From Ascidia mentula (Eukaryota; Chordata; Ascidiacea; Phlebobranchia; Ascidiidae): a DNA stretch of 64,000 bases. The stretch is taken from positions 1,741,001-1,805,000 of the forward strand of contig OX387205.1 of the NCBI GenBank assembly GCA_947561715.1. The letters are read 5' to 3'. This document shows, piece after piece, positions 1 through 63,724 of this stretch (its first letter is position 1; each line of letters starts with the position of its first letter). The translations under genes and the position numbers were made by a program. The notes under the pieces were generated by a model that saw nothing but the letters and a program-made list of their open reading frames with translations, was not told the origin of the DNA and ran no database searches.

Positions 1-296
1 GCCATCATGAGAAGATGGTGTTAGTTGTTGGCCAGGAGATAGCAGATTTGCGTGAGACTAGAGGTCTTGTGCTTGTTCCTGAAGCTCTTAGACGAAAACG
101 TGCACGCAGAATCGATCCAGGCCTACTATATGGAGCGTGGTGGTGGTGTTTGATTTCGCTCGGCGAAACAAAAATGTTAAGTCGCAATAGCGCCACCTGG
201 CGTCTTTGTCAGACTTGGTTAATGGCGATTCGAACGCTCTCTTAATTGAGTTGAATAATTGCCGGATTTGGGGACTGATATGGGAAATTAGCAAAT

Positions 297-455
297 GGTG
301 CGCGAGCACCAAATCAAGCACTTTTCCTCGATCGGTTGTCCACATCTTGGCTCGATCGTCGGGTTTTAGGTCGATTATTCGGCTTTTAATCCGTCGTTCG
401 AGCCTTGATGTGGGCATCCGATCGAGGAAAAGTGCTCGATTTGGTGCTAGCGCGC
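297..455. repeat. Long imperfect hairpin present in nearly every array unit (unit 1 copy)
   Basis: The arm from GCGCGAGCACCAAATC through CACTTTTCCTCGATCGG is repeated in reverse complement at CCGATCGAGGAAAAGTG through GATTTGGTGC. The inner sequence CCACATCTTGGCTCGATCG also pairs with the matching CGTTCGAGCCTTGATGTGGG. The foldback is therefore about 75 bp per arm with a small loop. Equivalent hairpins occur in the other units (for example 2064-2222, 3876-4034, 7406-7564). Confidence 0.85.
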
Positions 456-799
456 CTTTTCTTCTGAAAATCTCGAATTTGGAGCGACTCTGCGTTTTCA
501 AAGAAGGAAAATTGGAAATTATGAGCAACTCTGTGTGCACGTAACCGAAAAAGTGAATTTGGTCGACTCTGCGTTTACGTTTTGGGCGTATTTTGAAAAT
601 TTTTTTTTTTGCTTTTTCAAAAAAATAATTTGGAAAAAAAAGCAACTCTGAACACCACCCAAGTGTCCAGAGTCGCTTCCAGCGTCACCAACCTTTCCGC
701 CGTTTACAGTGGCAGTTTACGCACATACCCACAAAGAACAACACTACCGTTCCATCGCGCGATGGTCTCTAACATACTCGATAACGGTTATAGACTTAC

Positions 800-976
800 C
801 TCGGCCTGCGCATAATCCAGCTCTTGTTCTCCAATGCTTTCACATTTTCGTCCCAGCTCGTTTCGCTCAACATTAAAATCAACCTCGATATTTGCTACTT
901 TACCACGAAACCTCAGAGTTTCAGTTTTCTGACACCTCCTGCCAAAAACCTTAACGAGTTCCCAGCCACCAACCAT
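800..976 (-). other. Short minus-strand ORF ending at a splice donor, repeated in the array (unit 1 copy)
   Basis: Fifty-nine codons beginning MVGG and ending ELDYAQAE, followed at once by a consensus donor GAG|GTAAGT (donor at 799 in minus orientation). The same ORF is intact at 2624-2800, 7965-8141 and 9451-9627, each exactly 177 nt, and is disturbed in the other units. The middle is charged and helical in character (VANIEVDF, ERNELGRKCESI). A candidate acceptor (GACAATAG) lies about 110 nt downstream and would add a short tail. I recognise no family. It may be an exon captured when the array formed, or a small multicopy gene. Confidence 0.4.
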
Positions 977-1764
977 TCAACTTTAAATGAGGAAGCTCCA
1001 ATACTTCACAACGTTGCGGTCAAATCTCGTATATGCACGTATAGCTCGTACGTACCATGGTTAGTATTAGCTCTGAGTCGGATACAAACCCTCACAACGC
1101 ACGAGCGCTGTCTCTCATAGTAGGGCAGAATCGATTCTGCGTCTACCGCCACGCAATTGCTTCGCGAAAAATAACGTTTGTCAAAGCGTGCACGCAGACC
1201 CGTTCATCCAGTGCTGTAAGGGGGCAAGTCGTACCGCTGTAGTAGGTCGGTTGCGCACAGGAATGACGCAAACTAGGGCACGGAATGCCCATGGAAAACT
1301 TTGGGTTGATCCTGCGCCAAGATGCGTATGTCGCTTATCCGTTTTCTGTCGCATCGGACGCGGGTTAAATGTTTGTTGGGTGTGGATTCGCACACTGATT
1401 TGTTGAAGACACCCTCAGGTTTTTGTAACAAACCAGGCAGTGAACGCAGAGTCGATCCTGGGCCATCAGGAGAAGATGGTGTTACTTGTTGGCTGCTGGC
1501 AGGAGGTGGCTGATTTGCCTGAGATTCGAGGTGTTATGCTTGTTTTTCCAAGCCCTGCATGGGATACGTGTACGCAGAATCGATCCAGATCTCCTATGAG
1601 GAGCATTGTGATGGTGTTTGATTTCGCTCGGCAAAACGATAAATTAATGACGCAACAGCGCCACCTGGCGCCCTTGTGAGCCTCGATTTTTGGCGATTAG
1701 ATTTGCTGAAGAAGCCCACAGGTTTTTGGAGAAAACTAGGCAGTGGACGCAGAGTCGATCCCTG

Positions 1765-3576
1765 GCCATCATGAGAAGATGGTGTTAGTTGTTGGCCATT
1801 TGGGAGATAGCAGATTTGCGTGAGACTAGAGGTCTTGTGCTTGTTCCTGAAGCTCTTAGACGGAAACGTGCACGCAGAATCGATCCAGGCCTACTATATG
1901 GAGCGTGGTGGTGGTGTTTGATTTCGCTCGGCGAAACAAAAATGTTAAGTCGCAATAGCGCCAATTGGCGTCTTTGTCAGACTTGGTTAATGGCGATTCG
2001 AACGCCCTCTTAATTGAGTTGAATAATTGCCGGATTTGGGGACTGATATAGGAAATTAGCAAATGGTGCGCGAGCACCAAATCGAGCACTTTTCCTCGAT
2101 CGATTGTCCACATCTTGGCTCGATCGTCCGGTTTTAGGTCGATTATTCGGCTTTTGATCCGTCGTTCGAGCCTTGATGTGGGCATCTGATCGAGGAAAAG
2201 TGCTCGATTTGGTGCTCGCGCGCTTTTTCTTCTAAAAATCTCGAATTTGGAGCGACTCTGCGTTTTCAAAGAAGGAAAATCGCAAATTTTGAGCAACTCT
2301 GTGTGCACGTAACCGAAAAAAGTACCCAGAAATGGTGAAAAAAGTGAATTTGGTCGACTCTGCGTTTACGTTTTTGGCTTATTTTAAAGATTTTTTTTTT
2401 GCTTTTTTAAAAAAAATAATTAGGAAAAAAAAGCAACTCTGAACACCACCCAAGTGTCCAGAGTCGCTTCCAGCGTCACTAACCTTTCCGCCGTTTACAG
2501 TGGCAGTTTTGCATCTATTGCCACATATCAAACACACACGCACGCACATACCCACAAAGAACTACACCACCGTTCCATCGCGCGATGGTCTCTAACATAC
2601 TCGATAACGGTTATAGACTTAACCTCGGCTTGCGCATAATCCAGCTCTTGTTCTGCAATGCTTTCACATTTTCGTCCATGCTCGTTTCGCTCAACATTAA
2701 AATCAACCTCAATATTTGCTACTTTACCACGAAACCTCAGAGTTTCAGTTTTCTGACACCTCTTGCCAAAAACCTTAACAAGTTCCCTGCCACGAACCAT
2801 TCAACTTTAAGTGAGGAAGCTCAAATACTTCACAACGTTGCGGTCAAATCTCGTATAGGCACGTATAGCTCGTACGTACCATGGTTAGTATTAGCTCTGA
2901 ATCGGATCTAAACCTTCACAACGCACTAGCGCTGTCTCTCATAGTAGGGCAGAATCGATTCTGCGTCTACCGCCACGCAATTGCTTCGCGAAAAAAAACG
3001 TTTGTCAAAGCGTGCACGCAGACTCGTTCATCCAGTGCTGTAAGGGGCAAGTCGTACCGCTGTAAGAGCTCGGTTGCGCACATAGGAATGACGCAAATTA
3101 GGGCACTGAATGCCCATGGAAAACTTCGGGTTGATGCGTATGTCGCTTACCCGTTTTCTGTGGCATCGGACGCGGGTTAAATATTTGTTGGGAGTGGATT
3201 CGCAAACAGATTTGCTGAAGACATCCGCAGGTTTTTGTCGCAAACCAGGCAGTGAACGCAGAGTCGATCCTGGGCCATCATGATAAGATGGTGTTACCCA
3301 TTGGCTGCTTGAAGGAGGTGGCTGATTTGCCCGAGATAAGAGGTGTTATGCTTGTTTTTCCAATCCCTGCAAGGGATACGTGTACGCAGAATCGATCCAG
3401 ATCTCCTATGAGGAGCGTTGTGATGGTGTTTGATTTCGCTCGGCAAAACGATAAAGTGATGACGCAAAAGCGCCACCTGGCGCCCTTGTGAGCCCCAGTT
3501 TTTGGCGATTAGATTTGCTGAAGAAGCTCACAGGTGTTTGGAGAAAACTAGGCAGTGAACGCAGAGTCGATCCTTG
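1765..3576. repeat. Array unit 2 (A and B modules)
   Basis: Full-length unit with the hairpin at about 2064-2222, the intact minus-strand ORF at 2624-2800 (splice donor changed to GTTAAG) and the B module at about 3250-3545. Confidence 0.9.
2624..2800 (-). other. Short repeated ORF, unit 2 copy
   Basis: The same 59-codon frame as in unit 1 with a few substitutions (starts MVRGRELVKVFGKRC). The donor here reads GAG|GTTAAG instead of GTAAGT. Confidence 0.35.
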
Positions 3577-5391
3577 GCCATCATGAGAAGATGGTGTTAG
3601 TTGTTGGCCATTTGGGAGATAGCACATTTGCGTGAGACTAGAGGTTTTGTGCTTGTTCCTGAAGCTCTTAGACGGAAACGTGCACGCAGAATCGATCCAG
3701 ACCTACTATATGGAGCGTGGTGATGGTGTTTGATTTCGCTCGGCGAAACAAAAAGTTAAGTCGAAATAGCGCCACTTGGCGTCTTTGTCAGACTTGGTTA
3801 ATGGCGATTGGAACGCTCTGTTAATTGAGTTGAATAATTGCTGGATTTGGGGACTGATATGGGAAATTAGCAAATGGTGCGCGAACACCAAATCAAGCAC
3901 TTTTCCTCGATCGGTAGTCCGCATCTTGGCTCGATCGTCGGGTTTTAGGTCGATTATTCGGCTTTTGATCCGTCGTTCGAGCCTTGATATGGGCATCTGA
4001 TCGTGGAAAAGTGCTCGATTTGGTGCTCGCGCGCCTTTTCTTCTAAAAATCTCGAATTTGGACCGACTCTGCGTTTTCAAAGAAGGAAAATCGCAAATTA
4101 TGAGGAACTCTGTGTGCACGTAACAGAAAAAAGTACCCTGAAATGGTGAAAAAAGTGAATTTGGTCGACTCTGCGTTTACGTTTTGGGCGTATTTTGAAA
4201 ATATTTTTTCCTTTTTTTTCAAAACAAATTAGGAAAAAAAAGCAACTCTGAACACCACCCAGGTGTCCAGAGTCGCTTCCTGCGTCACCAACCATTCCGC
4301 CATTTACAGTGAAAGTTTTGCATCTATTGTCACATGTCAAACACACACGCACATACCCACAAAGAACAACACTACCGTTCCATCGCGCGATGGTCTCTAA
4401 CATACTCGATAACGGTTATAGACTTACCTCGCCTTGTGCATAATCCAGCCATTGTTCTGCAATGCTTTCACATTTTCGTCCCAGCTCGTTTCGCTCAACA
4501 TTAAAATCAACCTCAATATTTGCTACTTTACCACGAAACCTCGAGTTTCAGTTTTCTGACACCTCCTGCCAAACATTAACGAGTTCCCTGCCACCAACAA
4601 TTCAACTTTAAGTGAGGAAGCTCAAATACTTCACAACGTTGCGGTCAAATCTCGTGTATGCACGTATAGCTCGTACGTACCATGGTTAGTATTAGCTCTG
4701 AGTCGGATACAAACCCTCACAATGCACGAGCGCTGTCTCTCATAGTAGGGCAGAATCGATTCTGCGTCTACCGCCACGCAATTGCTTCGCGAAAAATAAC
4801 GTTTGTCAAAGCGTGCACGCAGACCCGTTCATCCAGTGCTGTAAGGGGGCAAGTCGTACCGCTGTAGTAGGTCGGTTGCGCACGTAAGGAATGACGCAAA
4901 TTAGGGCACTGAATGCCGTGGAAAACTTTGGGTTGATCCTGCGGAAATGATGCGTATGTCGCTTTCCCGTTTTCAGTCCCATCGGAGGCGGGTTAAATGT
5001 TTGTTGGGAGTGGATTCGCAAACAGATTTGCTGAAGACCCTCGCAGGTTTTTGTCGCAAACCAGGTAGTGAACGCAGAGTCGATCCTTGGCCATCATGAG
5101 AAGATGGTGTTACCTATCGGCTGCTGGCAGGAGGTGGCTGATTTGCCTGAGATTAGAGGTGTTATGCTTGTTTTTCCAAGCCCTGCAAGGGATACGTGTA
5201 CGCAGAATCGATCCAGATCTCCTATGAGGAGCGTTGTGATGGTGTTTGATTTCGCTCGGCAAAACGATAAAGTGATGACGCAACAGCACCACCTGGCGCC
5301 CTTGTGGGAGCCCCGATTTTTGGCGATTAAATTTGCTGAAGCCCACAGGTTTTTGGAGAAAACCAGGCAGTGGACGCAGAGTCGATCCTTG
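3577..5391. repeat. Array unit 3 (A and B modules)
   Basis: Full-length unit. The short minus-strand ORF of the family is shifted out of frame by small deletions near 4540-4580. Confidence 0.9.
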
Positions 5392-7108
5392 GCCATCATG
5401 AGAAGATGGTGTTAGTTGTTGGCCAGGAGATAGCAGATTTGCGTGAGACTATAGGTCTTGTGCTTGTTCCTGAAGCTCTTAGACGGAAACGTGCACGCAG
5501 AATCGATCCAGGCCTACTATATGGAGCGTGGTGATAGTGTTTGATTTCGCTCGGCGAAACAAAAATGTTAAGTCGAAATAGCGCCACTTGGCGTCTTTGT
5601 CAGACTTGGTTAATGGCGATTCGAACGCCCTCTTAATTGAGTTGAACAATTGCTGGATTTAGGGACTGATATGGGAAATTAGCAAATGGTGCGCGAGCAC
5701 CAAATCAAGAACTTTTCCTTGATCGGTTGTCCACATTTTGGCTCGATCGTCGGGTTTTAGGTCGATTATTCGGTTTTTGATCCGTCGTTCGAGCCTTGAT
5801 GTGGGCATCCGATCGAGGAAAAGTGCTCGATTTGGTGCTCGCGCGCCTTTTCTTCTCAAAATCTCCAATTTGGACCGACTCTGCGCTTACGTTTTGGGCG
5901 TATTTTGAAAATTATTTTTTTGCCTTTTTGAAAAAAAAAATTAGGAAAAAAAAGCAACTCCGAACACCACCCAAGTGTCCAGAGTCGCTCCCTGCGTCAC
6001 CAACCTTTCCGGCGTTTACAGTGGCATCTTTGCATCTATTGTCACATATCTAACACACACGCACGCACATACCCACAAAAAACTACACTATCGTTCCATC
6101 GCGCGATTGTCTCTAACATACTCGATAACGTTAATAGACTTACCTCGGCTTGCGCATAATCCAGCTCTTGTTCTCCAATGCTTTCACATTTTCGTCCCAG
6201 CTCGTTTCGCTCAACATTAAAATCAACCTCAATATTTGCTACTTTACCACGAAACCTCAGTTTCAGTTTTCTGACACCTCCTGCCAAAAACCTTAACGAG
6301 TTCCCTGCCACGAACAATTCAACTTTAAGTGAGGAAGCTCAAATACTTCACAACGTTGCGGTCAAATCTCGCATAGGCACGTATAGCTCGTACGTACCAT
6401 GGTTAGTATTAGCTCTGAGTCGGATACAAACCCTCACAACGCACGAGCGCTGTCTCTCATAGTAGGGCAGAATCGATTCTGCGTCTACCGCCACGCAATT
6501 GCTTCGCGAAAAATAACGTTTGTCAAAGCGTGCACGCAGAACCGTTCATCCAGTGCTGTAAGGGGGCAAGTCGTACCGCTGCAGTAGGTCGTTTGCACTC
6601 ATAGGAATGACGCAAATTAGGGCACTGAATGCTCCTGGAAAACTTTGGGTTGATCCTGCGCCAATGATGCGTATGTCGCTTACCCGTTTTCTGTCGCATC
6701 GGACGCGGGTTAAATGTTTGTTGGAAGTGGATTCGCAAACAGATTTGCTGAAGACACCCGCAGGTTTTTGTAGCAAACCAGAAAGTGAACGCAGAGTCGA
6801 TCATGGGCCATCATGAGAAGATGGTGTTACCTATTGGCTGCTGGCAGGAGGTGGCTGATTTGCTTGAGATTAGAGGTGTTATGCTTGTTTTTCCAAGCCC
6901 TGCAAGGGATACGTGTACGCAGAATCGATCCAGGTCTCCTATGAGGAGCGTTGTGATGGTGTTTGATTTCGCTCGGCAAAACGATAAAGTAATGACGCAA
7001 CAGCGCCACCTGGCGCCCTTGTGAGCCCCGATTTTTGGCGATTAGATTTGCTGAAGAAGCTCACAGGTTTTGTAGAAAACTAGGCAGTGGACGCGGAGTC
7101 GATCCCTG
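5392..7108. repeat. Array unit 4 (A and B modules)
   Basis: Full-length unit, about 100 bp shorter than unit 3 because the stretch between the hairpin and the T-rich tract (near 5880) is deleted. Confidence 0.9.
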
Positions 7109-8628
7109 GCCATCATGAGAAGATGGTGTTAGTTGTTGGCCATTTGGGAGATAGCAGATTTGCGTGAGACTAGAGGTCTTGTGCTTGTTCCTGAAGCTCT
7201 TAGACGGAAACGTGCACGCAGAATCGATCCAGGCCTACTATATGGAGCGTGGTGATGATGTTTGATTTCGCTCGGCGAAACAAAAATGTTAAGTCGCAAT
7301 AGGGCCACTTGGCGTCTTTGTCAGACTTGGTTAATGGCGATTCGAACGCCCTCTTAATTGAGTTGAATAATTGCCGGATTTGGGGACTGATATGGAAAAT
7401 TAGCAAATGGTGCGCGAGCACCAAATCGAGCACTTTTCCTCGATCGGTTGTCCACATTTTGGCTCAATCGTCGGGTTTTAGGTCGATTATTCGGCTTTTG
7501 ATCCGTCGTTCGAGCCTTGATGTGGGCATCTGATCGAGGAAAAGTGCTCGATTTGGTGCTCGCGTGTCTTTTCTTCTAAAAATCTCGAATTTGGACCGAC
7601 TCTGCGTTTTCAAAGAAGGAAAATCGCAAATTATGAGCAACTCTGTCTGCACGTAACCGAAAAAACGACCCTAAAATTGTGAAAAAGGGGAATTTGGTCG
7701 ACTCTGCGTTTACGTTTTGGGCGTATTTTGAAAAGTTTTTTTTTCCTTTTTTCAAAAAAAAATTAGGAAAAAAAGCAACTCTGAACACCACCCAAGTGTC
7801 CAGAGTCGCTTCCTGCGTCACCAACCATTCCGCCGTTTACAGTGGCAGTTTTGCATCTATTGTCACATATCAAACACACACACTCGCACATACCCACAAG
7901 GAACTACACTACCGTTCCATCGCGCGATGGTCTCTAACATATTCGATAACGGTTATAGACTTACCACGGCTTGCGCATAATCCAGCTCTTGTTCTCCAAT
8001 GCTTTCACATTTTCGTCCCAGCTCGTTTCGCTCAACATTAAAATCAACCTCAATATTTGCTACTTTACCACGAAACCTCAGAGTTTCAGTTTTCTGACAC
8101 CTCCTGCCAAAAACCTTAACGAGTTCCTTGCCCACAACCATTCAACTTTAAGTGAGGAAGCTCAAATACTTCACAACGTTGCGGTCAAATCTCGTATAGG
8201 CACGTATAGCTCGTACGTACCATGGTTAGTATTAGCTCTGAGTCGGATACAAACCCTCACAACGCACGAGCGCTGTCTCTCATAGTAGGGCAGAATCGAT
8301 TCTGCGTCTACCGCCAGGCAATTGCCTCGCGAAAAATAACATTTGTCAACGCGTGCACGCAGACCCGTTCATCCAGTGCTGTAAGGGGCAAGTCGTACCG
8401 CTGTAGTAGGTCGGTTGTGCACATAGGATTGACGCAAATTAGGGCACTGAATGCCCGTGGAAAACTTTGGGTTGATCCTGCGCCAATGATGCGTATGTCG
8501 CTTACCCGTTTTCTGTCGCATCGGACGCGGGTTAAATGTTTGTTGAGAGTGGATTCGCAAACAGATTTGCTGAAGACACCCGCAAGTTTTTGTCGCAAAC
8601 CAGGCAGTGGACGCAGAGTCGATCCCTG
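7109..8628. repeat. Array unit 5 (lacks the B module)
   Basis: Shorter unit of 1520 bp in which the B module is missing, so the next A module follows the promoter-like block directly at about 8600. It carries an intact 59-codon minus-strand ORF at 7965-8141. Confidence 0.9.
7965..8141 (-). other. Short repeated ORF, unit 5 copy
   Basis: The same 59-codon frame (starts MVVGKELVKVFGRRC). The last codon is GTG instead of GAG and the donor GTAAGT is kept. Confidence 0.35.
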
Positions 8629-10115
8629 GCCATCATGAGAAGATGGTGTTAGTTGTTGGCCAGGAGATAGCAGATTTGCGTGAGACTATAGGTCTTGTGC
8701 TTGTTCCTGAAGCTCTTAGACGGAAACGTGCACGCAGAATCGATCCAGGCCTACTATATGGAGCGTGGTGATGGTGTTTGATTTCGCTCGGCGAAACAAA
8801 AAAGTTAAGTCGCAATAGGGACAATTGGCGTCTTTGTCAGACTTGGTTAAAGGCGAATCGAACGCCCTCTTAATTGAGTTGAATAATTGCTAGATTTGGG
8901 GACTGATATGGGAAATTAGCAAATGGTGCGCGAGCACCAAATCGAGCACTTTTCCTCGATCGGTTGTCCACATTTTGGCTCGATCGTCGGGTTTTAGGTC
9001 GATTATTCGGCTTTTGATCCGTCGTTCGAGCCTTGATGTGGGCATCCGATCGAGGAAAAGTGCTCTAAAAATCTCAAATTTGGAGCGACTCTGCGTTTTC
9101 AAAGAAGGAAAATCGCAAATTCTGAGCAACTCTGTGTGCACGTAACCGAAAAAAGTATCCTGAAATTGTGAAAAAAGTGAATTTGGTCGACTCTGCGTTT
9201 ACGTTTTGGGCGTATTTTGAAAATTTTTTTTTTCCTTTTTTTTCAAAAAAAATTAGGAAAAAAAAGCAACTCTAAACACCAACCAAGTGTCCAGAGTTGC
9301 TTCCTGCGTCACCAACCATTCCGCCGTTTACAGTGAAAGTTTTTGGCTCTATTGTCATACATCAAACACACACACATACCCACAAAGAACAACACTACCG
9401 TTCCATCGTGCGATGGTCTCTAACATACTCGATAACGGTTATAGACTTACCTCGGCTTGCGCATAATCCAGCCATTGTTCTGCAATGCTTTCACATTTTC
9501 GTCCCAGCTCGTTTCGCTCAACATTAAAATCAACCTCAATATTTGCTACTTTACCACGAAACCTCAGAGTTTCAGTTTTCTGACACCTCTTGCCAAAAAC
9601 CTTAACGAGTTCCCTGCCACCAACCATTCAACTTTAAGTGAAGAAGCTCAAATACTTCACAACGTTGCGGTCAAATCTCGTATATGCACGTATAGCTCGT
9701 ACGTACCATGGTTAGTATTAGCTCTGAATCGGATATAAATCTTCACAACGCATGAGCGCTGTCTCTTATAGTAGGGCAGAATCGATTCTGCGTCTACCGC
9801 CACGCAATTGCTTCGCGAAAAATAACGTTTGTCAAAGCGTGCACGCAGACAAGTTCATCCAGTGCTGTAAGGGGGCAAGTCGTACCGCTGTAGTAGGTCG
9901 GTTGCGCACATAGGAATGACGCAAATTTGGGCACTGAATGCCCATGGAAAACTTTGGGTTGATCCTGCGCCAATGATGTGTATGTCGCTTACCCGTTTTC
10001 TGTCGCATCGGACGCGAGTTAAATGTTTGTTGGGAGTGGATTCGCAAACAGATTTGCTGAAGACACCCGCAAGTTTTTGTCGCAAACCAGGCAGTGAACG
10101 CAGAGTCGATCCTGG
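8629..10115. repeat. Array unit 6 (lacks the B module)
   Basis: Second short unit (1487 bp) without the B module. The right arm of the hairpin is truncated near 9060. An intact 59-codon minus-strand ORF lies at 9451-9627. Confidence 0.9.
9451..9627 (-). other. Short repeated ORF, unit 6 copy
   Basis: The same 59-codon frame (starts MVGGRELVKVFGKRC) with the donor GAG|GTAAGT. Confidence 0.35.
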
Positions 10116-11929
10116 GCCATCATGAGAAGATGGTGTTAGTTGTTGGCCATTTGGGAGATAGCAGATTTGCGTGAGACTAGAGGTCTTGTGCTTGTTCCTG
10201 AAGCTCTTAGACGGAAACGTGCACGCAGAATCGATCCAGGCCTACTATATAGAGCGTGGTGGTGGTGTTTGATTTCGCTCGGCGAAACAAAAATGTTACG
10301 TTGCAATAGCGCCAATGGGCTTCTTTGTCAGACTTGGTTAATGGCGATTCGAACGCTCTCTTAATTGAGTTGAATATTTGCTGGATTTGGGGACTGTTAT
10401 GAGAAATTAGCAAATGGCGCGTGAGCACCAAATCCAGCACTTTTCCTCCATCGGTTGTCCACATTTTGGCTCGATCGTCGGATTTTAGGTCGATTATTCG
10501 GCTTTTGATCCGTCGTTCGAGCCTTGATGTGGGCATCCGATCGAGGAAAAGTGTTCGATTTGGTGCTCGCGCGCCTTTCCTTCTAAAAATCTCGAATTTG
10601 CACCGACTCTGCGTTTTCAAAGCAGGAAAATCGCAAATTATGAGCAACTCTGTGTGCACGTAACCGAAAAAAGTACCCGGAAATGGTGAAAAAAGTGAAT
10701 TTGGTCGACTCTGCGTTTACGTTTTGGGCGTATGTTGAAAATTTTTTTTTTTGCTTTTTAAAAAAAATAATTAGGAAAAAAAAGCAACTCTGGACACCAC
10801 CCAAGTGTCCAGAGTCGCTTCCAGCGTCACCAACCATTCCGCCGTTTACAGTGGCAGTTTTGCATCTATTGTCACACATCAAACACACATGCACGCACAT
10901 ACCCACAAAGAACAACACTATCGTTCCATCGCGTGATGGTCTCTAACATACTCGATAACGGTTATAGACTTACCTCGGCCTGCGCATAATCCAGCTCTTG
11001 TTCTCCAATGCTTTCACATTTTCGTCCCAGCTCGTTTCGCTCAACATTAAAATCAACCTCAATATTTGCTACTTTACCACGAAACCTCGAGTTTCAGTTT
11101 TCTGACACCTCCTGCCAAACATTAAGGAGTTCCCTGCCACCAACCATTCAACTTTAAATGAGGAAGCTCAAATACTTCACAACGTTGCGGTCAAATCTCG
11201 TATAGGCACGTATAGCTCGTACGTACCATGGTTAGTATTAGCTCTGAATCGGATATAAATCCTCACAACGCACGAGCGCTGTCTCTCATAGTAGGGCAGA
11301 ATCGATTCTGCGTCTACCGCCACGCAATTGCTTCGCGAAAAATAACGTTTGTCAAAGCGTGCACGCAGACCCGTTCATCCAGTGATGTAAGGGGGCAAGT
11401 CGTACCGCTGTAGGAGCTCGGTTGCGCACATAGGAATGACGCAAATTAGGGCACTGAATGCCCGTGGAAAACTTTGGGATGATCCTGCGCCAATGATGCG
11501 TATGTCGCTTACTCGTTTTCTGTCGCATCGGACGCGGGTTAAATGTTTGTTGGTAGTGGATTCGCAAACAGATTTGCTGAAGACACCCGCAGGTTTTTGT
11601 CGCAAACCAGGCAGTGAACGCAGAGTCGAACCTGGGCCATCATGAGAAGATGGTGTTACCTATTGGCTGCTGGCAGGAGGTGGCTGATTTGCCTGAGATT
11701 AGAGGTGTTATGCTTGTTTGTCCAAGCCCTGCAAGGGATACGTGTACGCAGAATCGATCCAGATCTCCTATGAGGAGCGTTGTGATGGTGTTTGATTTCG
11801 CTCGGCAAAACGATAAAGTGATGACGCAACAGCGCCGCCTGGGGCCCTTGTGAGCCCCGATTTTTGATGATTAGATTTGCTGAAGAAGCCCACAGGTTTT
11901 TTTGTCAGTGGACGCAGAGTCGATCCCTG
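10116..11929. repeat. Array unit 7 (A and B modules)
   Basis: Full-length unit. It carries the perfect form of the 10-bp inverted repeat, CTCTGGACAC then GTGTCCAGAG, at about 10787-10813. Confidence 0.9.
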
Positions 11930-13729: not shown

Positions 13730-16366
13730 GCCATCATGAGAAGATGGTGTTAGTTGTTGGCCATTTGGGAGATAGCAGATTTGCGTGAGAGTAGAGGTCT
13801 TGTGCTTGTTCCTAAAGCTCTCAGACAGAAACGTGCACGCAGAATCGATCCAGGCCTACCATATGGAGCGTGGTGGTGGTGTTTGATTTCGCTCGGCGAA
13901 GCAAAAATGTTAAGTCGCAATAGCGCCACCTGGCGTCTTTGTCAGAATTGGTTAATGGCGATTCGAACGCCCTCTTAATTGAGTTGAATAATTGCTGGAT
14001 TTGGGGACTGATATGGGATATTAGCAAATGGTGCGCGAGCGCCAAATCAAGCACTTTTCCTCGATCGGTTGGTTGTCCACATCTTGGCTCGATCGTCGGG
14101 TTTTAGGTCGATTATTCGGCTTTTGATCCGTCGTTCGAGCCTTGATGTGGGCATCTGATCGAGGAAAAGTGCTCGATTTGGTGCTCGCGCGCCTTTTCAT
14201 CTAAAAATCTTGAATTTGGACCGACTCTGCGTTTTCAAAGAAGAAAAATCGCAAATTATGAGCAACTCTGTGTGTACGTAACCGAAAAAACGCCCCTGAA
14301 ATGGTGAAAAAAGGGAACTTGGTCGACTCTGCGTTTACGTTTTGGGCGTATTTTGAAAATATATTTTTCCTTTTTTTTCAAAAAAAATTTATGAAAAAAA
14401 AGCAACTCTGAACACCACCCAAGTGTGCAGAGTCGCTTCCTGCGTCACCAACTATTCCGCCGTTTACAGTGGTAGTTTTGCATCTATTGTCACATATCAA
14501 ACACACACGCACATACCCACAAAGAACTACACTATCGTTCCATCGCGCGATGGTCTCTAACATACTCGATAACGGTTATAGACTTACCTCGGCTTGCGCA
14601 TAATCCAGCTCTTGTTCTGCAATGCTTTCACATTTTCGTCCCAGCTCGTTTCGCTCAACCTCAATATTTGCTACTTTACCACGAAACCTCAGAGTTTCAG
14701 TTTTCTGACACCTCCTGCCAAAAACCTTAACGAGTTCCCTGCCACCAACCATTCAACTTTAAGTGAGGAAGCTCAAATACTTCACAACGTTGCGGTCAAA
14801 TCTCGTATAGGCACGTATAGCTCGTACGTACCATAGTTAGTATTAGCTCTGAGTCGGATACAAACCCTCACAACGCACGAGCGCTGTCTCTCATAGTAGG
14901 GCAGAATCGATTCTGCGTCTACCGCCACGCAATTGCTTCGCGAAAAATAACGTTTGTCAAAGCGTGCACGCAGACCCGTTCATCCAGTGCTGTAAGGGGC
15001 AAGTCGTACCGCTGCAGTAGCTCGGTTGCGCACATAGGAATAACGCAAATTACTCTGGACACTCTGGACACTCTGGACACTCTGGACACTCTGGACACTC
15101 TGGACACTCTGGACACTCTGGACACTCTGGACACTCTGGACACTCTGGACACTCTGGACACTCTGGACACTCTGGACACTCGAGTCTCCAGAGTGTCCAG
15201 AGTGTCCAGAGTCCAGAGTCCAGAGTCCAGAGTCCAGAGTCCCTTCCAGTGTCACCAACCTTTCCGCCGTTTACAGTGGCAGCTTTGCATCTATTGTCAC
15301 ATATCAAACACACACGCACGCACATACCCACAAAGAACTACACTACCGTTCCATCGCGCGATGGTCTCTAACATACTCGATAACGGTTATAGACTTACCT
15401 CAGCTTGCGCATAATCCACCTCTTGTTCTCCAACGCTTTCACATTTTCGTCCCAGCTCGTTTCGCTCAACATTATAATCAACCTCAATATTTGCTACTCT
15501 ACCACGAAACCTCAGAGTTTCAGTTTTCTGACACCTCCTGCCAAAAACCTTAACGAGTTCCCTGCCACCAACAATTCAACTTTAAGCGAGGAAGCTCAAA
15601 TACTTCACAACGTTGCGGTCAAATCTCGTATAGGCACGTATAGCTCGTACGTACCATGGTTAGTATTAGCTCTGAATCGGATATAAATCTTCACAACGCA
15701 CGAGCGCTGTCTCTCATAGTAGGGCAGAATCGATTCTGCGTCTACCGCCATGCAATTGCTTCGCGAAAAATAACGTTTGTCAAAGCGTGCACGCAGACCT
15801 GTTCATCCAGTGCTGTAAGGGGCAAGTCGTACCGCTGTAGGAGCTCGGTTGCGCACGTAAGGAATGACGCAAATTAGGGCACTGAATGCCCGTGGAAAAC
15901 TTTGGGTTGATCCGGCCCCAATGATGCGTATGTCGCTTACCCGTTTTCTGTCGCATCGGACGCGGGTTAAATGTTTGTTGGGAGTGGATTCGCAAACAGA
16001 TTTGCTGAAGACCCTCGCAGGTTTTTGTCGCAAACCAGGTAGTGAACGCAGAGTCGATCCTGGGCCATCATGAGAAGATGGTGTTACCTATTGGCTGCTG
16101 GCAGGAGGTGGCTGATTTGCCTGAGATTAGAGGTGTTATGCTTGTTTTTCCAAGCCCTGCAAGGGATACGTGTACGCAGAATCGATCCAGATCTCCTATG
16201 AGGAGCGTTGTGATGGTGTTTGATTTCGCTCGGCAAAACGATAAAGTGATGACGCAACAGCGCCACCTGGGGCCCTTGTGAGCCCCGATTTTTGGCGATT
16301 AGATTTGCTGAAGAAGCCCACAGGTTTTTGGAGAAAACCAGGCAGTGGACGCAGAGTCGACCCCTG
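13730..16366. repeat. Array unit 9, expanded to 2.6 kb
   Basis: The block from the 10-bp inverted repeat to the start of the promoter-like region is present twice (about 14425-15050 and 15240-15870). The two copies are joined by the 9-bp minisatellite at 15052-15240. The second copy continues into a normal B module. Confidence 0.9.
15052..15240. repeat. 9-bp minisatellite (ACTCTGGAC)n followed by its inverted copy
   Basis: About 14 perfect copies of ACTCTGGAC fill 15052-15180. After a short CGAGTCTCC spacer the sequence turns round: two 9-bp copies GTGTCCAGA, then five 7-bp copies GTCCAGA up to about 15240. The monomer is the arm of the 10-bp inverted repeat present once in every array unit (CTCTGGACAC/GTGTCCAGAG). 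The strand reversal would let the region fold into a long hairpin. The long VQS/SRV-type translations across it are artefacts of the 9-bp period. Confidence 0.95.
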
Positions 16367-17982: not shown

Positions 17983-18055
17983 TGTTTCCGCCCGGGCTCG
18001 AACCGGGGACCTTTCGCGTGTGAGGCGAACGTGATAACCACTACACTACGAAAAC
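17983..18055 (-). tRNA. tRNA-Val (anticodon CAC)
   Basis: On the minus strand a 73-nt cloverleaf begins GTTTTCGTAGTGTAGTGG. The acceptor stem is GTTTTCG/CGGAAAC (one G-T pair) with discriminator A. The anticodon loop is CTCACAC, giving anticodon CAC. The T arm is CCCGGTTCGAGCCCGGG, which contains the B box. The sequence is almost the same as vertebrate tRNA-Val-CAC as I remember it. There is no intron and no encoded CCA, as expected for a eukaryotic nuclear gene. Confidence 0.95.
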
Positions 18056-56700: not shown

Positions 56701-59700
56701 TATCATAAAGATGTTTAGTAGCAGAATACTGATGCATTAAATACTTTTTTGCAGATAAGAAAACTTGTAAACAACCTTTTCTTGAAGAGCACCATTGTTC
56801 GTCAGTTTGCACAAAGGCATTATGAAGTTGCATTGGACTTGGTGGAATACATCAAAAAAAATTTAGATACAAACGGAGAGGTTTGTGAAATTTGTTTTCA
56901 GCCTTTTGGGGGTTTTGTGTTCTTTACATTTAATAGTCATGGCGTATAAATTTTTTTAGCTTTATATTATAATGCTTGAACATGTTTGACATGTATAGAA
57001 ATATAGAGCAGTATTTTTCAACCTTTTTGAGCCAAGTAACACTTTTTTTATTAAAATAATCTTGCGGAACACCAAACTGTTGGAAGTACTGCGGCATTGT
57101 ACTTAACCAGCAACAGGCTCGCGCCATTACATTCTTATCATTACAAAACAAGTCTTATTGTTACACAACATTAAATAAAGCAATTCACTATGGAACATAC
57201 AAACCGGCCATAGTGGATGATTAATTTCATAAAGCTATTTACGCCCTTTGTGATAAACAAGCGATTTCCGACCATGTTCCAAGGAACATTAGTCAAACTA
57301 ATAAATTTCTCGCGGAACACAGGCCGATCTTTCACGAAACACTGATGTTCCGCGGAACACCGGTTGAAAATCACTGATATAGAGCATAGCAACTGCAATA
57401 ATTACCAATAAAAGTGACCAAAATATTGAATGAACAAATTAAACTGTCATTCATTCAAACATGAAATATTGCTGAATCATGAGAATAAAAGTCTACCCCT
57501 ATTTTTTCTGGGTAATCATGTCATTTGTAACAGCCTTAATTACCCTCAATTATATGTAGCAATAGAGGTCCTGTGGCTGGCCACTATTAATGATTGCAAT
57601 AAATCTTTTGCAGGTGCCCAATTTTGGTAAAGTACTCAACAGATGGGCAGTAGAAAGCACTGGAGTTTTTGCATTGGACACAAGACTAGGTCTGCTGAAA
57701 TATTGTAATCTATTTGAAGGGTTTTTGCAGTAGTTCCACCTGTCATAAACTGGTAACACAACAGTCCTTAACAAAATGTAATGTATTTGAAGAGTAGTAA
57801 TATTTCATGCAATGCCTTGGCTGCCAAGCCTGCAAACCTAATGATATTTAAAGAGTATAATCAATTTTAAAGCTAATTATATTCCAAACACAACGCCAAA
57901 TTTATCCACAAATCAAAAACTATCAAAGGCATTTTCACTAACAAAGAACACCAAATTAGCACCAAACTACTTACTTAATTTTTGCTGTTTTAAGGCATTT
58001 TCACTTTTTATGATAAAGGTGCTTTAAAACAAGATATCTCACCCACCTTGCAGAGCATGATTGATCACAATGAAAAAATGTTTAAAAGCATGGGGAAGCT
58101 TTTGTATGGTCTTCCTTTCTGGAAACTCTACAAGACAAAAGAATATAAGGTAAATTAAAGAAAGAAATACAATTTCATTCATCCACAAGATTCTTGGCCT
58201 TTATTTAACTGTTGTTTGTAACAAGAATAATACAACTATATGAAGAAAGCGACCAAAAAGCATGATAGATCATTTTCTTTCAAGATAAGCTTTTGCGTTG
58301 AGTTATACTGTATCTCTATTTCAATATAAACAGCTCTAGTCTACCAAGACTGGCACTGACGAAACTACATAGCAAAAACAAAAATTATTAAAATTTCAAA
58401 CATAACTGTTTTTGTGCAGAGGTTGTACGAAGGTCACAAGGGTCAAATAAAGGCAGCTCAATACCACGTGAAACGAATTATGAAAGAGTGCAGAGAAAAT
58501 AAGAGTGAATGGTCAAACCGACCAAGTATTTTGCATTCCGAAATGACGCCAGAGTAAGAGAAATATGCAAATTAAAAATTAAGTCAACTTTTTTCAAAAT
58601 GTATGTATTTTTTTAAGGAAAGCATTTTCAATTTCTAATCGAATAGAAAAAAAGTTTTTTCAAAATAATGAGATGCTGCAGTGTGAGGTTGAATTACTAA
58701 ACCAAGCAAATAATTTGCAGGCAAAAAACAATGCTTGTGACAGAAGTGTTGATAGCTGGGATTGATACGACAGCAAATGCAGTTGCCTTTCTGTTATATG
58801 CACTTGCCACAAATCCTCAAAAACAGGAAAAACTTAGAAAAGAAATCCATGAAATTTTTGCAACAACAGGACCATGTGGGAAGGTAATATTTTTAACCTC
58901 CATTTTTTACCTTTTGTTTTCACAAATAAAATCGTGGCTGCATAATATTTAGCAATATTAATGCCAAAAAAAAGAGTATAGCCATAGCTCTTTGTTAGCT
59001 AAGGTACATTGTATTTACTCTCCAACTACTGGATAGTGAACATGTAAAATTACTACAACAATTAAACAAAAAAATCTAAAGAAAAATAATTAAGTCAATG
59101 AAAATCAACCACCATAACGTTAACATTGTTGAAAGTCAACCAAATTTTTAACAGGATGGATAGTTTGAGACTTTTTCAACTGTGTCAGACTAGATTTATC
59201 AGGGCATCTACTTTACCATAGGTATATTATAATAAAAAACTCTACTACAGACACTTTCCAACGCCAAGTACCTGCAAGCATGCATAAAAGAAACCCAACG
59301 TATGTTCCCATTTGTCAGCAGTACATCACGACGATATGATCAAGATCTTGTTCTGTCTGGACATATAGTTCCTAGAGGTAAACAATATGTTATTGTAGAT
59401 ATTATTACTATTTATATTTTTTCTGGTAGTAGGGCTGTTTTTTGAAATTTACTGATGTAAATTACTCATTACTGGAACTTGGAAACATTTAAGCCCCATT
59501 TGTTGGACAAAAACAACTTTTACAAACATCTGTGTTAGGTGAACTGCAAACATGCACTTTTCATACTGCTATTTTTGCTGCCAGGCATACTTATTAATCA
59601 GAATTGTTCTTCTGGCACTCAAGTTTCTAGTGTTTATTTGAAACCGACGTTTCGTCTGCCATCCGGCGAGACCCTGAGGAAGTCTCGCCGGATGGCAGAC

Positions 59701-60777
59701 GAAACGTCGGTTTCAAATAAACACTAGAAACTTGAGTGCCAGAAGAACAATTCTGATTAATAATGCACGTTTCATAATTGCAGAATCAGCTTCGTTTTCA
59801 TTCACAGCAGGAAAATGAAGGATGTCTCCAAGAAAACATATATTTTTCCACATTAAATAAAATCAAGCTAATCCTGCTTTATAAATTATTTAATTTATTA
59901 CTAAAAGTGCAGCGATTGCCCCTCACAGTCCATTGGTTTAACCTTCAAATATAAACAACTGGGGTTCATCTTATTCACAGCCACAGGCTGCAGGTAATAC
60001 ATACTAAAATCAAAGTAATTTTAGGGACTCACATTCTCAACACTTCGAACATGATGAACAGCAGAAATCCTGAGTGTTTTCATGATCCCAACACATTCTT
60101 GCCGGAACGCTGGATGAAAGACTTTTCTGTTACAGAAAGGCAGGCACAAAGGTAATGTTTTGGGCATTTGTAGGTGCTGTAGTCACATTTTTTGTGTAAT
60201 ATCTAATTGCTAGCACTTACATAGGTGTATTTTGGGAGTCAAGCCGAAACATATCTGGTTTATTCAGTAATCTGATAATTTGGTTTATCTTTACACAATC
60301 AATTTTGGACTCTATTTATAAGTTATAATAAATATAGGGATATTTGTCACAAAAAAAAAACTTAATTTAAATGTAATAATTTTCTAAAATTCTTTGAAAA
60401 CACGCAGCAAAAAGTTTTAGAGCAACAATACTTAAATTTAATCGACAAATTGTTTTTTCAGATTTTTTATGTCAGGCCCATTTGGCATGGGAGTTCGTAT
60501 GTGTCCCGGACGAAAGTTTTCAATGCAAGAACTTCACATGGCAATCTCAGCGATTTTGCAAGACTTTCGCATCGAGTACCACCATAAACCAATCAAGGTG
60601 GCGTTCAGACTGGTTTCATTTCCAAGTGAGGAGCCACAGTTCAAGTTTATTCCACTGGAAAAAGATGAGAAAGAAGCTCTGCGTAGACATGCACGCATGA
60701 CAGTGTCACATGTCGGTTACACATCACATGGCACCTTGGAACACCAGGAAGGATTAAGGAAAAGTTCCAGTAGATGA
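53713..60777 (+). CDS. Mitochondrial-clan cytochrome P450
   Basis: Eleven exons: 53713-53818, 54110-54301, 56082-56251, 56755-56880, 57614-57689, 58019-58149, 58420-58553, 58721-58883, 59251-59377, 60025-60151 and 60462-60777. All are GT-AG with agreeing phases: 555 codons plus TGA, slightly longer than the usual ~500-530. Exon 1 encodes an Arg/Ser-rich N-terminus (MKCGSDIIRRAISS), fitting a mitochondrial presequence; this exon is inferred because exon 2 has no ATG in frame. Exon 2 has the proline-rich hinge and LGPIYKE. The I-helix has AGIDTT, the K-helix KETQR (ExxR), then FLPERW, and the haem loop is PFGMGVRMCPGR with the Cys ligand. CPHRDPL, NRWAVEST and ALDTRLG are typical of mitochondrial P450s (CYP10/11/24/27/49 relatives), which take electrons from adrenodoxin. 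The substrate cannot be named. A palindromic repeat and a hAT element sit in its introns. Confidence 0.93.
54915..55065. mobile_element. Diverged copy of the foldback/Penelope-like repeat family
   Basis: TTGCTGCAATATGGCCCATC at the left is inverted at the right (GAGCCGTATTGCAGCAA). The right arm has CCTGATAAACACTGCTGCA, then AAAACGTTGATACAATAAAA, matching the order in the 30.3-kb copy. It lies in P450 intron 2. Confidence 0.6.
57009..57376. mobile_element. Non-autonomous hAT-like element with 8-bp target duplication
   Basis: The ends are CAGTATTTTTCAACC and the inverted GGTTGAAAATCACTG. The 8-bp sequence ATATAGAG flanks it on both sides (57001-57008 and 57377-57384). An inner motif GCGGAACACC is also inverted. 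It is 368 bp with no transposase and lies in P450 intron 4. Confidence 0.85.
57808..57845 (+). mobile_element. Short SINE fragment
   Basis: CTTGGCTGCCAAGCCTGCAA followed by ACCTAATGAT matches the tail region of the 49.1-kb repeat. Confidence 0.4.
59575..59765. repeat. 82-bp perfect palindrome (foldback/Penelope-like family) in a P450 intron
   Basis: The left arm 59591-59672 and right arm 59682-59763 are exact reverse complements, separated by CCTGAGGAA. The left flank GCTGCCAGGCATACTTATTA matches the outer sequence of the 30.3-kb copy. From the spacer into the right arm it reads CTGAGGA, a stem (GTCT...AGAC), GAAACGTC: a hammerhead-like start without a clear stem III. Confidence 0.95.
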
Positions 60778-61518: not shown

Positions 61519-63724
61519 TCAAGTCTTGCTTTGTGGAACGGACTTGCTGAGTATTTCGTAGCATTCATCTAATGGACTCGAGTCATCTGTTGTATACCTA
61601 AAAAAGATTACGTAGTCCTATCACATGAGAAAGATGAGGCCCTTTTTCTTATCAAGGCCAAAGTAATTCACCTACATTATTTCCACACAAGATGTACCCT
61701 CTCATTGTAACATTAACTATGTTTAAATTTGTTTAATTAAAAAAAAATTAAGAATTTTTACTTTGAAATAGAACAACTTTTTTGTACACAACTGCCCACC
61801 TCAATGAATTCCTAAAAAAGTTCACAGATGCAGGATTGCTGTGAAGGACTGTTGCAACTACTTTATCCATTTTGTAGCTGCAAAGCAAACATGATAACAG
61901 CAAGGATTTTACTTTCGGGGATGAAAAACTTACCGAATCGCAAACAAATGTAAAATCTGAATCAAAAATTTTCCAAGTCCTTTTCTTTGTACAGATGAGT
62001 TCAATTGTATTTCGTAACTATGTGGGCAAAGATAAAAGTAACCAACAAATTAGTACAAAATCTTTAATATTCAAATTGTGTGAGGTAAACTGTTAAGAAA
62101 TTAGTTGACAAACATTTTACACTTTGCAAAGCTGCAGACAGGGTGTGTACATGCACTGTTTCGACCTGTAAGGTCTCATCAGTGCAGCTGTTGAGTGGCA
62201 CTGTGCTAGCTTTTACACTAGCAGGCACACTAGTCTCCACTTTGTGGTACCTTTCGGTCAACATCGATCTGCAGGGTACCCTATACTAGGTACCGAACAA
62301 CAGAGACGACGAACCACTGTGGAGCGCACTATGGCCAAACGGAACTGCTTGGTAACCGATAGTGCAAAAGGCAAAAAACACCAATGTACACACCCTGTCT
62401 GCAGCTTTGCAATATTATGGCTTTTTTTGCACATATATTTTACACTTTGTTGGTAACAATAAAACAAACAATTGCTATTGTTTCAACATAAAGAAAATGG
62501 TTGTATAAGTGTAATCTATGATATTTGCCCTTATTGACATCAAAAACGTAGAAAGATATCTTACAGTGTCTTAGGAATAACAGAGTCCATGTGATTGAGG
62601 CTATGTTCTCTCTTTATAAGTATTGAAACTAGTTGATGTAACAATGAAAATGTTTGCAGTAAACAAATATAGCTTCAGTAATTCGGCTTAGCTGTTTAGG
62701 GTGAAGTTCAATTGTCAATCTCACTATTAACAAAGATGTGAAAAACACAAACCAATAAACAACGGGATCTCCAAAATCTAGATCAAATCTGAAACTTGTG
62801 AAAGCGACAGGTTTTTCATCGTCGTCGAAAACTATCAAAAATCTCATCCGTTCATCCTTCAGCTCCTTCATTTTCTCTTTGTCACTCCAACCCCAACTGT
62901 CCACATACCTTTAAATAGAAGTTATTGACAAGGCAGATGAATGTACTGTTGATTATAATACAGGTGTTCTCGAACAAAACACAAGACATTATCTATTTTA
63001 GAAGAGAGTGTGATAATTTCAATGATTTCAAAGGGGTAGAAACGGTCAAGAAATACTGCCATAATACAATATAGATTCAAAAAGCTACAGGCCAAAATTT
63101 TCAGAATGCACATTAGTACGTCACCTACACAAGCGTATGTGATCAAACAGGAGCACTTACAATTGTTCCATGTTATTTTTCGTGAGATCAAACGCCCAGT
63201 CAACAACAGATGAATCAAGATCAATGAATTTAGAGCATTGTAAACTCAGACTCAATCCATTCTTACAAAACTTTTTAAATGAAACAAAATTTTCAAGCAG
63301 ATCATCAACCTGTATCAGAAGTACATACTTATAAGTACATACCAATAAAATTACTCACATATATTTACTTTTTGTATTATAACCCAAATGGTATATATTG
63401 CAACCTATATTAGTTAGCAGATTTGTTGTATTATTAATAACCTAGACAGCATTTGTTTCCAGAAATGACAAGCATAACAACCACAGCATGCAAATGGGAT
63501 AACATTTTCAAAAATACCATACAACTTACAGAGCTCGCAGCCTCCACTAACTTCCAGCAGCGGTCAGTTCTTTCTGATTTCTAAGCACAAGTGAATGTTA
63601 ATGGAAAAATACATGTAAATTGGGTCTGTTTTATATGATTTTATTTCACAGATAACCATTATTGTTTTGTTAAGTTTACCTCTTTCCTTTTCTGCTTTTT
63701 GTCTCTGGATTTGGCAGATTGTCT
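61519..63724 (-). CDS. NAA40: N-alpha-acetyltransferase 40 (NatD), 5' end outside the visible exons
   Basis: Seven exons on the minus strand: 63724-63680, 63580-63530, 63309-63161, 62908-62753, 62017-61934, 61877-61800 and 61597-61519 (TGA). All borders are GT-AG and phases agree. NAA40 acetylates the N-terminus of histones H4 and H2A. The order of segments matches human NAA40: basic start (KSRDKKQKRKE), SFKKFCKNGLSLSLQC, VVDWAFDLTKNNMEQL, SWGWSDKEK, FRFDLDFGDPVVYCYEIQLN, the acetyl-CoA loop VQRKGLGKF, and DDSSPLDECYEILSK. By memory of the human numbering, Asp127, Tyr136, Tyr138 and Glu139 are kept and Glu129 is Asp. The human Cys/His-rich tail is absent. No initiator ATG was found in frame before 63724, so the first exon is probably beyond the window. 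The fourth intron holds a hammerhead element. Confidence 0.93.
62124..62412 (-). mobile_element. Hammerhead-bearing element with 29-bp perfect terminal inverted repeats
   Basis: 62124-62152 and 62384-62412 are exact reverse complements (ends TTGCAAAGCTGCAGACAGGG). The minus strand inside carries ACCACAAAGTGGA and the hammerhead, both shared with the 48.4- and 50-kb repeats. A further hairpin (GCACTAT/ATAGTGC) lies at about 62327-62364. No protein-coding content is seen. Non-autonomous elements with hammerheads are known among Penelope-like elements and retrozymes, but which this belongs to is open. Confidence 0.8.
62130..62189 (-). ncRNA. Type I hammerhead ribozyme
   Basis: Read on the minus strand: stem I AGCTGCA (62189-62183); core CTGATGA (62182-62176); stem II GACC (62175-62172), loop TTACA, GGTC (62166-62163); core GAA (62162-62160); stem III ACAG (62159-62156), 14-nt loop, CTGT (62141-62138); cleavage-site C (62137); stem I TGCAGCT (62136-62130). 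All invariant core positions match the hammerhead consensus and every stem pairs perfectly (7, 4 and 4 bp). Predicted self-cleavage lies after 62137. The RNA is sense to NAA40. Confidence 0.9.

What the first reader, a model, noticed from the sequence alone, without database searches (positions are those of the whole stretch)
62130..62189. Complete type I hammerhead ribozyme
The minus strand has CTGATGA, GAA and a GTC cleavage site in the right order. Stems I (7 bp), II (4 bp) and III (4 bp) pair without a mismatch. The chance of all this arising at random is very small, and the sequence predicts a self-cleaving RNA.
Basis: partly seen in the sequence, partly recalled or inferred. Interest (0 to 1): 0.88.

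Follow-up and report, generated by a model that had tools for sequence, protein, structure and literature searches.

The report
Hammerhead retrozyme inserted by Penelope-like machinery
The predicted self-cutting RNA is real in sequence and is part of a small non-coding jumping element repeated through this genome, and the scars it leaves on insertion resemble those of Penelope-type retrotransposons in the same genome.

Summary
The hammerhead at 62130-62189 (minus) is as described: core, GTC site, stems of 7, 4 and 4 pairs. A strict descriptor finds it once in the window and once in 300 control windows. Rfam scores it below threshold. It is not a lone motif: it lies in a 310-bp insertion (62127-62436) with a 13-bp target duplication, in an intron of a NAA40-like gene, sense strand. 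The insertion belongs to a young repeat family with a 291-bp tandem unit, one hammerhead per unit: a non-LTR retrozyme, a known kind. The interesting part is the insertion anatomy. Of 36 loci, 19 are head-to-head, none tail-to-tail. In 13 of 14 head-to-head loci with clear duplications, one outer end lies 6-12 nt past the ribozyme cut and the other 33-41 nt (one at 46). Penelope-like elements of the same genome show the same short/long rule (10 of 10 pairs read, three families). Published work proposed Penelope mobilisation of animal retrozymes from co-occurrence and shared ribozymes; here the junctions support it. Four of 52 insertion starts lie at the ribozyme cut, hinting at cleavage in vivo. 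Cleavage, circles and the partner enzyme are not shown.

The parts
62130..62189 (-). Type I hammerhead motif; C17 at 62137, predicted cut between 62137 and 62136
   Evidence: sequence, descriptor scan, 81 full copies in 40 loci
62127..62388 (-). Retrozyme sequence, almost one 291-bp unit, ending about 10 nt past the ribozyme cut (short end)
62385..62436 (+). Inverted retrozyme fragment ending about 37 nt past the cut position (long end); its overlap with the other end makes the 29-bp inverted repeat 62124-62152 / 62384-62412
62114..62126 (.). Target site duplication, left copy ATTTTACACTTTG
62437..62449 (.). Target site duplication, right copy ATTTTACACTTTG
62018..62752 (-). GT-AG intron of a NAA40-like gene that holds the insertion, ribozyme on the sense strand
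   Evidence: flanking exons match N-alpha-acetyltransferase 40; splice sites read by eye

Best explanation
The motif is the ribozyme of a non-autonomous, non-coding retrotransposon (a metazoan-type non-LTR retrozyme) with a 291-bp unit. Tandem copies are transcribed; the hammerhead cuts the RNA into units that probably become circles (inferred from published retrozymes). A Penelope-like reverse transcriptase with a GIY-YIG endonuclease, from the same genome, uses the RNA as template: it cuts the target on both strands about 12 bp apart and starts reverse transcription from both target ends inside the RNA, at two sites about 10 and 37 nt downstream of the ribozyme cut. The two cDNAs meet at variable points, giving head-to-head insertions with one short and one long outer 3' end and a target duplication of about 12 bp. 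The window copy is such an insertion, in sense in an intron of a NAA40-like gene, where it might still cut the pre-mRNA. Shown: family, layout, ends, duplications, intron. Inferred: transcription, cleavage, circles, enzyme identity.
For: Repeat family: 180 matches from 40 scored of 1845 candidate places; tandem 291-bp unit; 16 further loci listed. Of 36 loci left after dropping four with the same flanks, 19 are head-to-head, none tail-to-tail. Exact duplications of at least 10 bp at both ends in 22 of 36; with flanks of other loci the mean match scores were 5.5-7.8, maxima 6-15. Of the 14 head-to-head loci with such duplications, 13 have both ends at the two sites, and all 13 have one short and one long. 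Penelope-like elements in the same genome: two read in full have RT and GIY-YIG domains; three families carry a hammerhead-like motif after the ORF (my reading); head-to-head pairs read have one short and one long end in 10 of 10 (A 7, B 2, C 1); in family A about +73 to 75 and +112 to 122 past its cut. A purified Penelope-like enzyme of Anolis cuts both strands and starts reverse transcription at two adjacent internal sites, which explains the genomic tail (PMC11167929, parts 1-2 of 4 read); rotifer Penelopes show head-to-head layout, 8-10 bp duplications and a 31-bp tail on one inverted end (PMC3846280, passages). Ribozyme use: 4 of 52 5' ends at the cut (P 0.002); 5 of 16 single-orientation inserts start at the initiation sites, as one lap of a circle would give (P 0.004); both with bins chosen after seeing the data.
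Against: No RNA data. Rfam models stay below threshold. No sequence match longer than 10 nt between the retrozyme and the units of Penelope families A and B, or longer than 9 nt with the family C ends, so the partner is not identified. The minimum-energy fold of the 60-nt window copy is not the hammerhead (-19.6 against -13.6 kcal/mol); in the array context the hammerhead is within 1 kcal/mol (-23.6 against -24.6). Of 19 head-to-head loci six are not in the 13: L034, L037, L039 and L057 have one outer end elsewhere (unit 279, 85, 123, 74), L035 is ambiguous, L066 fits by homology but lacks a clear duplication. One long end of the 13 is at 46 (L063). 14 of 36 loci lack a clear duplication. The site ranges were drawn from the same loci.
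Confidence: 0.8

Rival explanations
1. A miniature DNA transposon (MITE): the 29-bp inverted repeat is a transposase-bound terminal repeat and the hammerhead is incidental.
For: 29-bp perfect inverted repeat and a 13-bp duplication at the window copy.
Against: The inverted repeat is only the overlap of two oppositely oriented 3' ends; one locus has eight units one way and five the other, inner junctions vary, outer ends come in two kinds, and duplications vary from 10 to 15 bp.
Confidence: 0.04
2. A retrozyme moved by a LINE-type reverse transcriptase with twin priming rather than by a Penelope-like element.
For: Target duplications of this size and 5' inversions also occur in LINE insertions (recalled, from no call).
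Against: LINE twin priming is expected to leave one fixed 3' end and one variable end (recalled), not two fixed sites used one per side, which is what Penelope-like elements of this genome show. LINEs of this genome were not examined.
Confidence: 0.1
3. Satellite DNA spread by recombination, with a dead or chance hammerhead.
For: Tandem arrays exist; no transcription data.
Against: Dispersed insertions with target duplications; core and stems vary at 0.8% against 2.4% for the unit outside the hammerhead, or 1.6% by my arithmetic without the three most variable sites; inserts starting at the cut.
Confidence: 0.05

Closest known systems
Metazoan non-LTR retrozymes (Cervera and de la Pena 2020, PMC7229834; abstract, passages, sections 13 and 17 read)
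   Same: Type I hammerhead once per unit, tandem units of 150-450 bp, GC below 50% (here 291 bp, 47.8%), duplications longer than 4 bp, many copies, Penelope-like elements in the same genome.
   Different: Head-to-head layout and paired short/long ends are not mentioned in what I read. Expression as circles is untested here. The window copy is a single unit.
Penelope-like elements: Poseidon of Anolis (PMC11167929, parts 1-2 read) and Penelope of Adineta (PMC3846280, passages)
   Same: Head-to-head inserts, a tail on one of the two inverted ends, target duplications, tandem units, hammerhead in the Anolis element.
   Different: The retrozyme encodes no RT or endonuclease; its hammerhead has a 4-bp stem III with a 14-nt loop, unlike the minimal Penelope type; its tail is about 28 nt rather than 30-40.
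Plant LTR retrozymes (PMC4918200, search listing only; described in PMC7229834)
   Same: Small non-autonomous retroelement with hammerheads.
   Different: Plant ones have type III hammerheads in LTRs with 4-bp duplications; here type I, no LTR seen, about 12 bp.

Membership tests
Type I hammerhead ribozyme | Core CUGANGA, GAA, UH in order around three stems, stem I open | tested here: met
Type I hammerhead ribozyme | Covariance score over the Rfam gathering threshold | tested here: not met
   none; best 24.9 bits against 48.5; I keep the motif reading on the other features, so this row lowers the claim of family membership by Rfam's standard
Type I hammerhead ribozyme | Loop 1 - loop 2 tertiary contact | tested here: inconclusive
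   array units have an internal loop in stem I that GCCA/TGGC can close; the contact itself was not computed; the window copy lacks the native 3' strand
Type I hammerhead ribozyme | Self-cleavage | not testable with these tools
   indirect only: 4 of 52 5' ends at the cut
Metazoan non-LTR retrozyme | Tandem units of 150-450 bp each with a type I hammerhead | tested here: met
   291-bp unit; up to 13 hammerheads in one locus; the window copy itself is a single unit
Metazoan non-LTR retrozyme | GC below 50% and, when present, duplications longer than 4 bp | tested here: met
Metazoan non-LTR retrozyme | Expressed as circular RNA | not testable with these tools
   no RNA data
Penelope-type insertion | Head-to-head layout with a tail on one of two inverted ends and a target duplication | tested here: met
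   13 of 14 head-to-head loci with clear duplications; 17 of 36 loci are in one orientation only
Penelope-like element (as an element) | RT and GIY-YIG open frame | tested here: not met
   no open run over 96 codons in three joined units
DNA transposon / MITE | Same terminal repeat at both ends of all copies and fixed duplication length | tested here: not met

The most novel reading that the evidence does not exclude
Animal retrozyme RNAs are templates for Penelope-like enzymes that start inside the RNA at two sites just past the ribozyme cut, one from each target strand, and at times run once round a circular RNA or off its self-cut end; the insertion junctions are therefore a genomic record of both the ribozyme cut and the mobilising enzyme.
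Probability: 0.6. Interest if true: 0.65.

Novelty: new member of a known kind. Interest (0 to 1): 0.52.

Why it matters
Which enzyme moves animal retrozymes is open: the papers I read name Penelope-like elements as candidates from co-occurrence, tandem copies and shared hammerheads (PMC7229834 section 17, PMC7761336 passages). Paired short/long ends past the ribozyme cut give a sequence test that can be run on any genome with retrozymes, and this genome holds both partners, the Penelope-like ones with long open frames (21 of 121 GIY-YIG matches over 600 codons). Inserts beginning at the cut hint that the ribozyme works in vivo.

Tried and rejected
MITE, satellite and chance readings were weighed and set aside (see rivals). 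Covariation: copies are too alike; I saw no compensatory change by eye among the 81 hammerheads, so covariation says nothing either way. Sequence kinship of the retrozyme with Penelope families: only matches of at most 10 nt, not counted as evidence. RF00163 and RF00008 over the genome gave only sub-threshold hits elsewhere, not followed. The genome is held without a name and I did not try to name the host.

Counting notes: L053, L054, L055 (same flanks as L049) and L065 (same flanks as L035) were dropped before counts over 36 of 40 loci. L037 and L056 were left out of the 52 5' ends because their structure is complex. Bins were chosen after seeing the data, and one of the five starts there (L052, 45) lies outside the sharper range. 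In one search the family C ends were misplaced by my search frame (it began at +60); one search gives +49 and +82. In one search the duplications of L074/L070 (cut short by the fetched stretch) and L092/L093 are 8 bp, not above the control maximum of 10; their short/long call rests on homology. Penelope pairs read are those I chose from the list (not all pairs there). L103, which fits the rule, was picked after one search had already shown its opposite-strand match ending at the short site, so it is not a blind test, contrary to the wording of my note.

Full report
Observation. The minus strand of 62130-62189 holds the motif exactly as described. The core pattern is expected 0.01 times per window by shuffling, and a strict descriptor with all three stems gives one hit in the window and one in 300 Markov controls of 64 kb. 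Rfam does not reach its gathering score; the best sub-threshold matches are Hammerhead_3 at 24.9 bits and RAGATH-1 hammerhead at 24.5. Array units score equally low (24.9 to 28.8 bits).

A repeat family. The region has a 29-bp perfect inverted repeat and a direct repeat around it. Searching the window's own genome (196 Mb, 79 contigs, unnamed) gave 180 matches from 40 scored of 1845 candidate places. I read 40 loci (L001 and 39). Arrays show a 291-bp unit with one hammerhead. 81 full hammerheads were found in these 40 loci; 56 are identical to the unit. Mismatch rates are 0.8% for core and stems and 2.4% for the unit outside the hammerhead. A second query listed 16 more loci, of which two were read.

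Fold. In the array context (89 nt) the hammerhead with an outer stem I helix GCCA/TGGC lies at -23.6 kcal/mol against -24.6 for the minimum; the 60-nt window copy folds better otherwise (-19.6 against -13.6). The energy model does not count the tertiary core.

Insertion anatomy. I number the unit from the first base after the cut. Of 36 loci (four with the same flanks as others dropped), 19 have a minus part on the left and a plus part on the right, none the reverse, and 17 are in one orientation. 22 of 36 have exact duplications of at least 10 bp at both ends; with flanks of other loci the mean match scores were 5.5-7.8 and the maxima 6-15 (scored with mismatches). 14 head-to-head loci have such duplications. 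In 13 both ends are at two sites, short 6-12 and long 33-41 (one at 46, L063), and all 13 have one of each (0.00012 if the two sides were independent and equal). L034 is the exception (279 and 38). Without clear duplications, L066 fits by homology (8, 38), L035 is ambiguous, and L037, L039 and L057 have one end elsewhere. L103, read later, is head-to-head with ends at 13 and 40 by homology and a 14-bp duplication by eye, but one search had already shown its short end; L104 is a single-orientation copy with a long end and a 14-bp duplication by eye.

The window copy. Element 62127-62436, duplication ATTTTACACTTTG at 62114-62126 and 62437-62449, short end on the left (unit 10), long end on the right (unit 37). 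It lies in a 735-bp GT-AG intron between exons that match N-alpha-acetyltransferase 40 (E 2.4e-12 and 5.3e-7), ribozyme on the sense strand.

Penelope-like elements here. A GIY-YIG search gave 121 matches (150 of 382 candidates scored), 21 with open frames over 600 codons and many in minus-left, plus-right pairs. Two read in full have RT and GIY-YIG domains. After the ORF three families carry a CTGANGA...GAA motif with a 4-nt palindromic stem III, which I read as the minimal hammerhead reported for Penelope-like elements (passage in PMC7761336); Rfam did not score it in L070 and L071 at E up to 1. In family A ends placed by duplications lie at +73 to 75 and +112 to 122 past its cut; all 7 pairs read are one short, one long; of 7 single ends read, 6 are short and 1 long. 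Family B 2 of 2 pairs, family C 1 of 1 (+49 and +82). An Anolis Penelope-like enzyme cuts both strands at AT-rich DNA and starts reverse transcription at two adjacent internal sites that match the genomic tail (PMC11167929, parts 1-2 of 4 read). The retrozyme thus carries the Penelope junction rule, though its sequence shows no kinship to the families examined. The same paper reports that ribozyme mutants of the Anolis element still insert in vitro, so cleavage is not a needed step there.

Ribozyme use in vivo. 4 of 52 5' ends lie at the cut (L033, L047, L048, L051; P 0.002); 5 of 16 single-orientation inserts start at the initiation sites (P 0.004), for instance L067, 35 to 38, and L061, 10 to 12, about one lap. 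L033 and L048 have four extra bases between duplication and unit, as run-off at an RNA end might give (inference). Numbers are small and bins post hoc.

Literature. PMC7229834 (abstract, passages, sections 13 and 17) describes animal retrozymes and names Penelope-like elements as a strong candidate mobiliser; PMC7761336 (passages) repeats this. In the listings of searches I saw no paper on paired short/long ends in retrozymes; I opened four of the listed papers, preprints and most subscription papers are not held, and two likely ones (Cervera 2014, Lunse 2017, seen only in a reference list) could not be read.

Verdict. A real hammerhead motif, in a new member of a known kind of element, with junction evidence for Penelope mobilisation that I rate as the interesting part.

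Noticed in passing
62018-62752 (minus): The insertion lies in sense in an intron of a NAA40-like gene, so the ribozyme could cut that pre-mRNA.
   Followed up: partly
G000:C67:6134028-6146916: Penelope-like elements in tandem (2870-bp period between the last two), arranged minus, minus, plus, plus, plus; four of the five frames have 885-892 codons, one 559.
   Followed up: partly
L070 515-550 and 3183-3218; L071 from about 355 and 3225; L100/L101: Minimal hammerhead-like motifs with palindromic 4-nt stem III after the ORF of three Penelope-like families; Rfam did not score those of L070 and L071; L100 and L101 were not scanned.
   Followed up: partly
58731-60777 (plus): Exons of a cytochrome P450 gene (Pfam p450).
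   Followed up: no
88-10659 (minus): Similar open frames of 137-185 codons at 88-645, 1856-2308, 3706-4119 and 10207-10659, apparently a local repeat.
   Followed up: no
15052-15181: Perfect 9-bp tandem repeat, 14.4 copies of ACTCTGGAC.
   Followed up: no
17983-18055 (minus): tRNA gene, Rfam 63.9 bits.
   Followed up: no
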